NCBI RefSeq assembly: GCF_003182075.1
Contig: NZ_QGTH01000006.1
Location: 1-64,000 of the forward strand
DNA from: Finegoldia magna
GTDB lineage: Bacteria > Bacillota > Clostridia > Tissierellales > Peptoniphilaceae
Length of the DNA: 64,000 nt
Direction: 5' to 3'
Under the pieces are notes generated by a model, which was given only the letters and a program-made list of their open reading frames with translations, searched no databases and had not been told where the DNA came from. Positions within the stretch are counted from its first letter, which is position 1; each line of letters starts with the position of its first letter. The position numbers and the translations under genes were made by a program. This document shows positions 1 to 3,373 of this stretch, piece by piece.

Positions 1-31
1 TGAGTCTTGTTTCTGGTCTTTTTCTTGGCAT
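1..31 (-). CDS. Start of an unidentified leftward gene (partial)
   Basis: On the minus strand an ATG at 31-29 opens a frame encoding MPRKRPETRL before the window ends. It is preceded by a strong AGGAGG ribosome-binding site (complement of 41-46) with 7-8 bases of spacing. Basic N-termini of this kind occur in small DNA-binding proteins such as TetR-type regulators and in some transposases, but ten residues cannot identify it. The palindrome overlapping its promoter would fit a self-repressing regulator. That idea is inference only. Confidence 0.55.
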   Translation of the reverse strand, partial: MPRKRPETRL

Positions 32-36
32 TTTAA

Positions 37-69
37 AATCCTCCTGATTACTATTATATCAGGAGGATT
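37..69 (-). promoter_or_regulatory. Palindromic promoter/operator before the partial gene
   Basis: A perfect 12-base inverted repeat, AATCCTCCTGAT (37-48) and ATCAGGAGGATT (58-69), has a 9-base centre. On the minus strand the centre and inner arm contain TATAAT (complement of 53-58), a good -10 box. The distal arm contains the AGGAGG Shine-Dalgarno sequence of the gene starting at 31. A repressor bound here would cover both the -10 box and the start region. If transcription began further upstream, the RNA hairpin would instead hide the ribosome-binding site. Confidence 0.5.
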
Positions 70-110
70 CTATACACAAACTATTTCACAGTCTCTGTAA
101 TTTTTAGATT

Positions 111-1334
111 TTATGCTACTTTTAATTCTTGTTTTTGGGCTTTTGATTCCATAACTCTTGCATAGTAGATTCTTAAGAATTTGTTTAATCCTGCAAATTT
201 ACATACTTTTTTGGCTTTTCCTTCTTTTTCTTTTTTTATCATGTACTTATATATTTCATTTTCTGCTTTTTTAGCACTCATCATACATTTCATTGCTTGG
301 TAGCCTACTTTTCTTAGTATTGCGTTTCCACTTTTACTTATTTTTCTTTGATCTGCTTTAAAGTTTCCTGATTCATATGGTGGTGCGTCTATCCCTATAA
401 AGGATATTAGGCTTTTTTTATTTTTAAATTTTGATAGGTCGCCAAATTCTGCTACTATTTGTACTGCTAATTTTTCTGATATGCCTGAGAATTTTTTTGC
501 TTCTTGATATTCTTCTAAGGGCTCGGATATTTCTATCATTTGTGATAAAATTCTATTTAGAATCTGATTTATTTGTTTTATCAGGTTTATTCCTTCTCTG
601 ATATTTGTTTCTATTTTTGTGTTATGGGAAGGTTGTGTTGAGATACTATCCTCTGCTAATTGGTAAATGGCTTTTGCTTTGTTTGCATTTGGATGGTATC
701 TCTTTTCTTTTGCCCACCTTTTATATTCTTCTATAAATTCTTCTTCTGTTTTTTCTAATACTAGGTCTTTATGCCACCATTTTTCTAAAAAGTCTAAGAG
801 TTTGTCTTTTGAAAAGTCTCCTGAATTATGTAGTATTAGTTTTTTTATGCCTGGAAATGTTTGATGCATTGTTTGATCTATGTAGTTCATTTGATCGATT
901 CTTAGCTCCATGTAATGTTGGTAGTTTCTGTTTAATTCTTTTAAGACTATGTAGTTTTCTTCATCTACTTTGTATTCTTCTAATTCTTTCCAATACATTA
1001 GTCCATATTCTGCTATTTGTTTTGCATCCATCTTGTCATTTTTTGCTTTTCTAAAGTTTAATGCTCGACAATATTGTTTCATTTTTAATGGATTTATTAC
1101 TGTTACAAAGTATCCTCTATCTTTTAATTCATAAAGTATTGGTAGATGATATTTTCCTGTTGCTTCCATTGTTATTTTTACTTCTTCTTTTAATTTTTCT
1201 AGTTTCTCTATTAATTCTTCTACTTTTGTTTTTTTAAGAGAAACATCAAAGGGTTTCCAAATTATTTTGTTTCCTTGTTCTAATGCACAAACCGTTATTT
1301 TTTCTTTTGATATGTCTATTCCTACAGATATCAT
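111..1334 (-). CDS. IS110-family transposase (RNA-guided DEDD recombinase)
   Basis: This 407-residue protein has the two-part IS110 layout. The N-terminal RuvC-like DEDD domain shows D7 in VGIDIS, E57 in MEATGKYH, and D100 and D103 in NDKMDA. A helical linker of about 100 residues follows. The C-terminal Transposase_20 domain (about 280-350) has SGISEKLAV and ISKSGN, where the family's catalytic serine resides (S333 or S335). The length is normal for the family and the frame is unbroken, so the enzyme looks intact. The start ATG follows GAAGGGAAATT, a moderate ribosome-binding site. Known IS110 enzymes recombine DNA guided by a bridge RNA from the element's non-coding end. In the IS110 group that end lies upstream of the gene, here at 1335-1510. 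Confidence 0.95.
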   Translation of the reverse strand: MISVGIDISKEKITVCALEQGNKIIWKPFDVSLKKTKVEELIEKLEKLKEEVKITMEATGKYHLPILYELKDRGYFVTVINPLKMKQYCRALNFRKAKNDKMDAKQIAEYGLMYWKELEEYKVDEENYIVLKELNRNYQHYMELRIDQMNYIDQTMHQTFPGIKKLILHNSGDFSKDKLLDFLEKWWHKDLVLEKTEEEFIEEYKRWAKEKRYHPNANKAKAIYQLAEDSISTQPSHNTKIETNIREGINLIKQINQILNRILSQMIEISEPLEEYQEAKKFSGISEKLAVQIVAEFGDLSKFKNKKSLISFIGIDAPPYESGNFKADQRKISKSGNAILRKVGYQAMKCMMSAKKAENEIYKYMIKKEKEGKAKKVCKFAGLNKFLRIYYARVMESKAQKQELKVA

Positions 1335-1510
1335 AATTTCCCTTCTTTCTTATTATTTTGTAGTTTCTACCTGCACCATTACACTCTTTTTAGCTTGTGA
1401 CACGGACGTTTTGCCCAACCTGCTTAACCGAATATGAATAATGAAAAGGTAGTTGACAGTTTTATTGGCGGATGTTTCAACCCTAAAAGCGACTCGTCAT
1501 ACTACATCTT
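1335..1510 (-). ncRNA. Candidate IS110 bridge RNA (left-end non-coding region)
   Basis: This gene-free stretch lies directly upstream of an intact IS110-group transposase, where bridge RNAs are encoded in that group. On the minus strand it can fold into an outer stem (complements of 1501-1505/1449-1453 and 1496-1498/1455-1457) enclosing an internal loop of nearly 40 bases. A GC-rich segment (about 1396-1432) follows, unlike the AT-rich surroundings. I could not assign target- and donor-binding loops, because that needs the element's exact ends and its target. Confidence 0.4.
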
Positions 1511-1522
1511 CATTATACAAAA

Positions 1523-1560
1523 ATAGTGCAAGATAGGAATTACTTCCTTTCTTACACTAT
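1523..1560 (-). terminator. Strong hairpin, second terminator for the wall hydrolase
   Basis: On the minus strand the arms (complements of 1560-1544 and 1539-1523) pair over 16 of 17 positions, counting one G-U pair, around a short loop. A run of five U follows (complement of 1518-1522). It lies just beyond another terminator for the same transcript and would shield the IS element from readthrough. Confidence 0.65.
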
Positions 1561-1570
1561 TTATGGTACT

Positions 1571-1602
1571 AAAAAAGCTACTAGCATTAAATGCCAATAG
1601 CT
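1571..1602 (-). terminator. Terminator of the NlpC/P60 gene
   Basis: The minus-strand RNA forms AGCUAUUGGCAU / AUGCUAGUAGCU with a three-base loop. Its two apparent mismatches become G-U pairs only in this strand. Six U follow. It sits 8 bases after the hydrolase stop codon. Confidence 0.8.
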
Positions 1603-1609
1603 TATGATT

Positions 1610-3373
1610 TTAGTTTAAGATTCTTCTTGCTGTTACAAATGTATTTGAGTAATAGTTTGAGTCAATGTCTGAAATAATTACACCAGTTGAAGGTGTTGAT
1701 GCATGAATCATTTTTCCATTACCAACATAAATCCCAACGTGAGAAATACTTCCTGAACCATTTGTACTAAAGAATAACAAATCTCCTTGTTTTAAATTAC
1801 TTTTATTTACAGGATATCCATTATTTGATTGTGCAGCTGAGTTTCTATAAAGAGAAATACCGCAAACTTTATTATATAAATAACTAGTTAATCCAGAGCA
1901 ATCAAATCCTACTCCTGGTTGTGCAGAACCCCAAACATATCTTTCTCCCAAATAATTATAAGCTGCTTGAGCTACAGCACTGCCAGAACCACCTTCATTA
2001 GATCTTACAACCTTAGAATTAGAATCTTTTTTGTAAGAATCTTTAACTTCTGTGTTTTTTGTTTGGTTTGATTCAACTTTACTGTCTTGAATATAATTTA
2101 CAGAAACATATCTACCTTCAGAAAGTTTTAACCAATATTCTCCCTTAATACCACTTACTTTAGTACCTTTTTCTAATACAGAAACTATGTTAGAATCCAT
2201 GCTGTCTTTATCTCTAACATTTACAGCTTCCTTTACATATCCAGTATAGTTAGCTCCTTCAAATTTTGTAGAATTTGATTTCTTCACTTGTTCTTTGGTT
2301 TTAACTTCTGAAACTTTAAGTTCATCATTTTTCTTTTCTTCAATTTTAGTTTTTTGCAAGTATTTTATACTAATAAAACCATTATTTCCATTTACAGAAG
2401 TTTTGAACCATCCATCTTCAACTACACCTTGTACTTTAGTGTTTTTCTCTAATACACCTAGTTTATTAGAGCTGATTGATTTTTCACTTCTTAGATAAAC
2501 TGGAGATTTTACCCACATATCTACTGGCTTTTCAGTAGATTTAGATTTTACTTCAGATTTTACTTTCTTAACTTCAGGATTATTTTTTGAAACTTGTTTT
2601 TTAGTTTCAGAATCTACTTTTTTATTTGATTTTTCATTCGTCAAGAAGTCTTTACTTACGTATGCTTCTTTGTTTTTATAGCTTATTTTTGCCCATGATT
2701 TATTGCTATCATCTTTAACAACAATTTTAGTATCTTTTGGTAATACACCTATTGCTTCAGATTCTTTATCTGCTTGTTCTCTTACAAATAAATCACCTGT
2801 CGTAGATTTTGTTATATTTGAATAAATCTTTTCTTCTTCATTTTCAGAATTTCTTGAAAGAGTTAATGAAGCTACTTCAGATTTTTCTTTCTTTAGGCTT
2901 GATTTTGAATTCTTATTATCTTCTGAAATTTTCCCAACATTTGCAGTAGATAATTCTACTTTTTTAGATTCATCTTTTTTTGGATCTACTTTTTCACTAT
3001 TTTTTTTATATGTAGAAACGTTATTATAAACAGAATCTTTTAATTCTTGCTTATTCTCTTTAACTTCTTTTACTTCAGAATTAATTTCTTCTTTAGATTC
3101 TTTAGATATAGTTCTTGTGGAATCATTTAATACGTTTCTTACTTGTGAATTTCTTATTTCATTAAGAGCTTTCTCTTTTTCTTCTTTTTCAGCATTTGGA
3201 GTCAATAAATCATTGCTTTTTATTGCAACTGAATATTTAGAATCATTTGATTGATTAGACTCAATATTATTGTCTCCGATTAAAGTTGTAGAACTTAAAT
3301 AAGGCGATACAAAAGTTCCTACAGCTATGACTGAAGCTAATCCGATAGATAAGCCAAGTCCTTTTTTGTTCAT
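1610..3373 (-). CDS. Secreted SH3b-repeat NlpC/P60 peptidoglycan endopeptidase
   Basis: This 587-residue exported wall hydrolase begins with a signal peptide (MNKK then a hydrophobic stretch to about residue 28). A long Lys/Glu/Ser-rich linker follows, then three SH3b repeats at roughly 190-250, 285-345 and 375-435, each with the xVNVR/VYLRS-like core. The C-terminal NlpC/P60 cysteine peptidase occupies about 470-587. The catalytic triad is visible as C492 in DCSGL, H545 in SHVGIY and H557 in IHAS. Such enzymes cut stem peptides (typically D-Glu-diaminoacid or related bonds) during growth and separation. AGGAGG sits 8 bases before the ATG. It is a single-gene unit with its own promoter, two WalR-like boxes and tandem terminators. 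Confidence 0.93.
   Translation of the reverse strand: MNKKGLGLSIGLASVIAVGTFVSPYLSSTTLIGDNNIESNQSNDSKYSVAIKSNDLLTPNAEKEEKEKALNEIRNSQVRNVLNDSTRTISKESKEEINSEVKEVKENKQELKDSVYNNVSTYKKNSEKVDPKKDESKKVELSTANVGKISEDNKNSKSSLKKEKSEVASLTLSRNSENEEEKIYSNITKSTTGDLFVREQADKESEAIGVLPKDTKIVVKDDSNKSWAKISYKNKEAYVSKDFLTNEKSNKKVDSETKKQVSKNNPEVKKVKSEVKSKSTEKPVDMWVKSPVYLRSEKSISSNKLGVLEKNTKVQGVVEDGWFKTSVNGNNGFISIKYLQKTKIEEKKNDELKVSEVKTKEQVKKSNSTKFEGANYTGYVKEAVNVRDKDSMDSNIVSVLEKGTKVSGIKGEYWLKLSEGRYVSVNYIQDSKVESNQTKNTEVKDSYKKDSNSKVVRSNEGGSGSAVAQAAYNYLGERYVWGSAQPGVGFDCSGLTSYLYNKVCGISLYRNSAAQSNNGYPVNKSNLKQGDLLFFSTNGSGSISHVGIYVGNGKMIHASTPSTGVIISDIDSNYYSNTFVTARRILN

What the first reader, a model, noticed from the sequence alone, without database searches (positions are those of the whole stretch)
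1335..1510. Candidate bridge RNA in the upstream end of an intact IS110 element
IS110-group transposases are RNA-guided, and their guide is encoded in the non-coding DNA upstream of the gene. Here that DNA is about 180 bases, folds on the transposase strand, and has GC-rich segments unlike the surroundings. The transposase retains all DEDD residues and the serine block. If confirmed, this would be a new bridge RNA from an anaerobic Firmicute.
Basis: partly seen in the sequence, partly recalled or inferred. Interest (0 to 1): 0.7.

Follow-up and report, generated by a model that had tools for sequence, protein, structure and literature searches.

The report
Bridge RNA of a terminator-targeting IS110
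The stretch encodes the guide ("bridge") RNA of a jumping element whose family, in human-associated anaerobes, inserts mostly into the T-runs of transcription terminators, and the guide's two halves match the DNA on either side of its own insertion; it is a well-supported new member of a known RNA-guided system with an unusual choice of target.

Summary
The bridge RNA is real. The transposase (111-1334, -) is an IS110-group DEDD/Ser recombinase; its predicted fold matches IS621 and ISCro4. About 45 related copies in Peptoniphilaceae and neighbours fix the ends. A three-part structured RNA (5' stem-loop, target-binding loop, donor-binding loop) spans about 1562-1379 and is supported by compensatory changes. 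An open scan of RNA columns against flank positions puts the covariation exactly at a left target guide (same sense) and a right target guide (complementary), the IS621 geometry. For the window copy the right guide matches its flank 9/9, the left guide 7 of 8 at the best register. A sister species holds the empty site, TAGC-TTTTTTT-ATTGGACG. Three empty/occupied comparisons give core TT. Corrections: the element is not intact, because a second IS (IS256-like, 8-bp duplication AAATTACA) splits off its right end onto another contig, with one mismatch to the donor guide. Unexpected: 21 of 38 insertions sit directly after an intrinsic-terminator hairpin, against 6% of control T-runs. The target class resembles that of group IIC introns; I found no report of it for IS110. 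Expression and activity were not tested.

The parts
111..1334 (-). IS110-group DEDD/Ser recombinase, 407 aa (D7, E57, D100, D103, S322)
   Evidence: predicted fold matches ISCro4 and IS621 at Z about 22
1335..1571 (-). left end (LE) of the element, non-coding; starts TAGTACC after core TT
   Evidence: copy alignment and three empty/occupied site comparisons
1379..1562 (-). bridge RNA region: 5' stem-loop plus target-binding and donor-binding loops; transcript ends inferred
   Evidence: covariance model hit 1379-1517, pair counts, 5' stem-loop folds
1521..1562 (-). 5' stem-loop, conserved by compensatory change (L061, L094)
1485..1494 (-). left target guide (LTG) AGTCGCTTTT
   Evidence: 7 of 8 nt match to own left flank at the best of two registers; covariation peak in open scan
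1460..1468 (-). right target guide (RTG) CCAATAAAA
   Evidence: complement TTTTATTGG equals own right flank TTTTATTGG; strongest covariation of the scan
1417..1425 (-). left donor guide (LDG) AAGCAGGTT
   Evidence: matches RE tip TTAGCAGG + core TT in relatives; changes with the RE tip in L097
1389..1394 (-). right donor guide (RDG) GCTAAA
   Evidence: pairs with core TT + TAGT of the LE tip; changes with LE in L094, L095 and L097
1572..1573 (-). core dinucleotide TT at the LE junction (its position inside the T-run is inferred)
   Evidence: T counts at three empty sites: exactly 3 extra T per insertion
1577..1602 (-). terminator hairpin of the upstream NlpC/P60 gene, whose T-run is the target
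   Evidence: hairpin -12.8 kcal/mol; empty orthologue in sister species G001
96..103 (-). 8-bp target duplication AAATTACA of the second IS that splits the right end
   Evidence: same 8 bp at the C3 side of the gap
1..95 (-). 5' end of the inserted IS256-like element (family inferred from 8-bp duplication and imperfect inverted repeats)

Best explanation
This is the left end of an IS110-group element. It encodes a bridge RNA whose first internal loop names the target (LTG pairs with the bottom strand left of the core, RTG with the top strand right of it) and whose second loop names the element's own joined ends. The element most likely leaves as a circle. The RE-LE junction then creates a promoter (TTGACT-17-TACCAT) that drives the bridge RNA and recombinase, and the recombinase joins the circle to a TT core in a T-run. 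In this lineage the guides are tuned to intrinsic terminators (3' arm of the hairpin plus T-tract), so insertions fall after genes and leave a hairpin plus T-run on the left side. Shown here: ends, core, structure conservation, guide-flank covariation and terminator enrichment. Inferred: transcription, the circle, and activity. The window copy may be inactive.
For: Ends and copies. Structure: 97.7% of cells paired, 9 pairs changed on both sides against 1.3 in shuffles, 0/500; the same target-binding loop from single-sequence folds of L001, L019, L030, L061, L094 and L097. Guides: RTG against right flank 4.91/6 versus 3.64 permuted (z 5.1, 0/5000), LTG against left flank z 5.7 (0/5000). The open scan has its strongest left-flank signal at LTG (same sense) and its strongest right-flank signal at RTG (complementary). 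Donor arms change with the element's tips in L094, L095 and L097. Empty sites: G001, Helcococcus, and the G013 repeats. Terminators: 21/38 against 125/2204 control T-runs, Fisher 3e-16. RNA model and transposase co-occur across 130 family genomes. Fold.
Against: No RNA data. Copies within a genome are not independent, so the p-values are optimistic, although permutation was by guide class. LTG matches are often only 4-6 of 8, and several copies with a terminator-like guide sit outside hairpins (L019-L022, L069, L076). The junction -10 (TACCAT) is weak. An internal TATAAT at 1512-1517 could be the real promoter, which would shorten the RNA. Helix 1 overlaps that TATAAT, so its conservation could be partly promoter conservation.
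Confidence: 0.95

Rival explanations
1. The upstream region is only a 5' UTR with attenuator or terminator hairpins that protect the transposase from read-through; it guides nothing.
For: The 5' stem-loop ends in a T-run (CACTATTTTTG) and looks terminator-like. The single-sequence fold of the whole region is not exceptional (z -1.64).
Against: It does not explain why two variable segments in internal loops match the left and right insertion flanks in opposite senses and change with them, or why the donor arms change with the element tips.
Confidence: 0.03
2. Terminators are chosen because the recombinase or bridge RNA recognises the hairpin structure (as proposed for some REP- or attC-targeting elements), with the guides secondary.
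For: 21 of 38 insertions are right after a hairpin, with very different hairpin sequences.
Against: Guides match flanks beyond the T-run. Copies with the same guide also sit in non-hairpin sites that fit the right guide (L019-L022). G013 relatives use a CCCATTTCGAG repeat fitted by both guides.
Confidence: 0.12
3. The guide-flank agreement arises because the guide region was copied from or converges on common terminator composition (G-rich then T-run).
For: All terminator-type LTGs end in a T-run, and cross-matching is high (3.3 of 8).
Against: The permutation keeps composition and still separates own from foreign flanks (0/5000). The right-flank signal (ATTGG, TATG, GTAT, GCTT, CGAG) is unrelated to terminator composition.
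Confidence: 0.03

Closest known systems
IS621 (IS110 group, E. coli) and its bridge RNA (PMC11208160, PMC11208158)
   Same: LE-encoded RNA with 5' stem-loop, target-binding and donor-binding loops; LTG/RTG and LDG/RDG geometry with shared core; DEDD + Ser recombinase; predicted circle-junction promoter
   Different: Core TT instead of CT; target is terminator T-runs instead of REP elements; recombinase 407 aa with about 87 extra residues in the linker/coiled-coil region; both ends long (RE about 150 nt)
ISEc21 / ISMch6 seekRNA (IS110 type, PMC11187229)
   Same: Upstream non-coding region gives the guide RNA; bottom-strand match lies 5' to the top-strand match; natural redirection of guides between relatives
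   Different: Linear target inside IS3-family transposase genes; other sequence and core
ISCro4 (IS110; structure 9t56)
   Same: Predicted fold of the recombinase, Z 22.0 over 296 residues
   Different: 22% identity; shorter protein; different RNA and target
Group IIC introns (class C), which insert after Rho-independent terminators (described in PMC3522654)
   Same: Same choice of insertion site: downstream of terminator hairpins
   Different: Unrelated machinery (ribozyme and reverse transcriptase); works alike only in choice of site

Membership tests
IS110 group (IS110 family), bridge-RNA bearing | DEDD RuvC-like domain plus Tnp domain with catalytic Ser | tested here: met
   residues per PMC11208158
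IS110 group (IS110 family), bridge-RNA bearing | Structured ncRNA in the LE upstream of the gene, with target-binding and donor-binding loops | tested here: met
[quoted passage not shown]
IS110 group (IS110 family), bridge-RNA bearing | Donor arms match the element's own ends | tested here: met
   LDG and RDG against RE and LE tips, with matching changes in L094, L095 and L097; the window's own RE has one mismatch
IS110 group (IS110 family), bridge-RNA bearing | Core dinucleotide shared by donor and target, no further duplication | tested here: met
   three empty sites, 3 extra T (core TT + one T of the LE); exact position within the T-run is ambiguous
IS110 group (IS110 family), bridge-RNA bearing | Circular intermediate with promoter at the RE-LE junction | tested here: inconclusive
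   joined ends give TTGACT-17-TACCAT, conserved in relatives; circle not observable
IS110 group (IS110 family), bridge-RNA bearing | RNA is transcribed and bound by the recombinase; guides can be reprogrammed | not testable with these tools
   needs RNA-seq, RNP pull-down and an assay
IS1111 group | Guide RNA in the RE downstream of the gene, long sub-terminal inverted repeats | tested here: not met
   guide arms found in the LE; no long inverted repeats seen at the aligned tips

The most novel reading that the evidence does not exclude
A bridge-RNA lineage specialised on intrinsic terminators. Through retuning of its guides between copies (22 left-guide classes among 44 copies, several in one genome) it spreads into the 3' ends of many different genes without breaking them. 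This would be an RNA-guided recombinase counterpart of terminator-homing group IIC introns.
Probability: 0.7. Interest if true: 0.6.

Novelty: new member of a known kind. Interest (0 to 1): 0.5.

Why it matters
It adds a natural guide series: dozens of copies with different guides and known insertion sites, several inside one genome. This allows guide-target rules and natural reprogramming of bridge RNAs to be read without experiments. It also shows a way to insert repeatedly with little harm, by aiming at the T-runs of terminators, and gives candidate recombinases with core TT and an enlarged linker for programmable DNA insertion.

Tried and rejected
Rfam has no matching family at gathering or relaxed threshold. 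No similar element in phage records; one weak plasmid match, an IS110 gene of Pseudobutyrivibrio; none in viral contigs. My first guide parsing was wrong: it dropped one T and mis-cut G-rich left guides, and it gave no signal for the right flank. The corrected extraction was checked by eye against the sequences before the test, and independently by the open scan of all RNA columns. A MAFFT alignment with all divergent members mis-aligned the 5' stem and hid its covariation, so a model built from close members was used to align the rest. RNA-model hits without a transposase in G113 were contig ends, not solo RNAs. Literature searches found no report of IS110 insertion in terminators, but the library is open-access only.

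Full report
WHAT IS THERE. The ORF at 111-1334 (-) is an IS110-family transposase of 407 aa. Sequence alignment to IS621 puts the catalytic D11/E60/D102/D105/S241 of PMC11208158 on D7, E57, D100, D103 and S322 (the offset of two between chain and IS621 numbering is inferred from the known residues). An AlphaFold model (mean pLDDT 84, with a low-confidence serine loop at 317-333) matches ISCro4 and IS621 at Z about 22 over about 295 residues, then TIGR-TasR and Nop domains. The protein is longer than IS621, with about 87 extra residues between the RuvC and Tnp parts.

ENDS. The window is the start of contig C6 of a 59-contig assembly. Relatives were found in Mediannikoviicoccus vaginalis (three copies, 98%), Peptoniphilus vaginalis (92%), Anaerococcus marasmi (seven copies, 82%), Helcococcus sueciensis, Neofamilia, Tissierella and one Streptococcus halichoeri. 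Copies in one genome are near-identical from TTTAGTACC on the left to TTAGCAGG on the right and diverge outside.

THE ELEMENT IS SPLIT. After the stop codon the window follows its relatives only to position 96. There an 8-bp repeat AAATTACA and the terminal repeat of another IS begin. The missing right end is on contig C3:110164-110293 (-), preceded by the other end of that IS and the same AAATTACA. I call the second element IS256-like from the 8-bp duplication and imperfect repeats (inference). The RE tip of the window element is AGCAAG where relatives have AGCAGG.

EMPTY SITES. The sister genome G001 has the same NlpC/P60 gene followed by a terminator TATTAGTATTAATACTAATAGC-TTTTTTT-ATTGGACG without the element. 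The window's strain has TAGC-TTTTTT-AGTACC on the left and AGCAAG-TTTT-ATTGGACG on the right. Helcococcus shows the same at an IS3-like leader: empty GTCAG-TTTTTT-CATGAC, occupied with 5 T and 4 T. In G013 a dispersed repeat reads CCCATTTCGAG when empty; occupied copies read CCCATTT-AGTAC and AGCAGG-TTTCGAG. All three gain exactly three T: a core TT plus the first T of the LE, if the core is placed next to AGCAGG.

RNA STRUCTURE. A covariance model made from close members finds the region in the window (1379-1517, 171.6 bits) and in relatives down to 37% transposase identity (L097, 46.4 bits). Scanned over 130 family genomes it occurs in 21, mostly the same genomes as the transposase. On the model alignment 97.7% of cells are paired, and nine pairs changed on both sides against 1.3 in shuffles (0 of 500); slid versions pair 35-53%. 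The alignment was fitted to the structure, but the target-binding loop also appears in single-sequence folds of L001, L019, L030, L061, L094 and L097. Upstream lies a conserved 5' stem-loop (1562-1521) with compensatory differences in L061 and L094. The order, 5' stem-loop then two stems with internal loops, is that described for IS621 (PMC11208160).

GUIDES. The 5' side of the first internal loop and its 3' side are the most variable parts. Tabulated against flanks, the 5' side reads like the left flank and the 3' side like the complement of the right flank. Permuting guides among guide classes: right 4.91 of 6 observed, 3.64 expected (z 5.1); left 4.62 of 8 observed, 3.32 expected (z 5.7); none of 5000 permutations reaches either. 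An open scan of every RNA column against every flank position gives its strongest left-flank signal at the LTG in the same sense, and its strongest right-flank signal at the RTG in the complementary sense. For the window copy the right guide gives TTTTATTGG and the flank is TTTTATTGGACG; the left guide AGTCGCTTTT faces AGTAGCTTTT. The donor loop carries AAGCAGGTT (RE tip AGCAGG + TT) and GCTAAA (complement of TTTAGT, one G-T pair). L094 and L095, whose LE reads TTTGG, carry CCAAA instead. L097, with ends AGCAAG and ATTCG, carries AGCAAG and CGAAT.

TARGET CHOICE. The left flank of 21 of 38 insertions (G013 excluded) is a stable hairpin abutting the T-run, against 125 of 2204 TTTT sites in the same loci. 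The element therefore mostly enters intrinsic terminators, leaving hairpin plus T-run on the left side. Same-guide copies in non-hairpin sites suggest that base-pairing, not hairpin shape, decides (inference). Group IIC introns choose the same kind of site (PMC3522654). IS110 elements are known to target REP palindromes (PMC1525189); I found no report for terminators.

MECHANISM AND LIMITS. Joining RE and LE gives TTGACT-17-TACCAT, conserved in relatives, consistent with the junction promoter reported for IS621 and ISEc21. Transcription, circles and activity were not observed. The window copy has an RE-tip mismatch to its donor guide, a foreign IS in its right end, and S335 where R is nearly invariant, so it may no longer move.

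VERDICT.

Noticed in passing
window 1-95; G000:C3 end (L178): A second IS (IS256-like, 8-bp duplication AAATTACA) sits in the right end of the IS110 and probably caused the contig break between C6 and C3.
   Followed up: partly
L084 (G000:C2:76599), L085 (G000:C2:83634): Short elements (about 95 bp at C2:76599) that carry terminal repeats of that second IS around a short hairpin, with no gene: probable MITEs.
   Followed up: no
G013 loci L128-L157: A dispersed repeat in about 46 copies (CAGACTGTTGACAAACTAAAAATTTgCCCATTTCGAGCGAACG...) used as the landing site by the 58%-identical relative of this IS110.
   Followed up: partly
L158-L177: The leader of an IS3-like element (GGAGGTCAGTTTTTT-ATG) is used as a landing site in Peptoniphilus, Anaerococcus and Helcococcus: one mobile element inserting in another.
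   Followed up: partly
L007 (G000:C10:49558-50754), L008 (C3:9-926), L009 (C37): Further, distant IS110 transposases in the same genome (25-29% identity), with upstream regions not analysed here.
   Followed up: no
L155: One G013 insertion reads CCCATTTC-AGTAC, one base off the usual junction: a possible alternative core or later change.
   Followed up: no
window 1610-3373: The gene whose terminator hosts the element encodes a 587-aa secreted-looking protein ending in an NlpC/P60-like domain (by sequence reading; no family search run).
   Followed up: no
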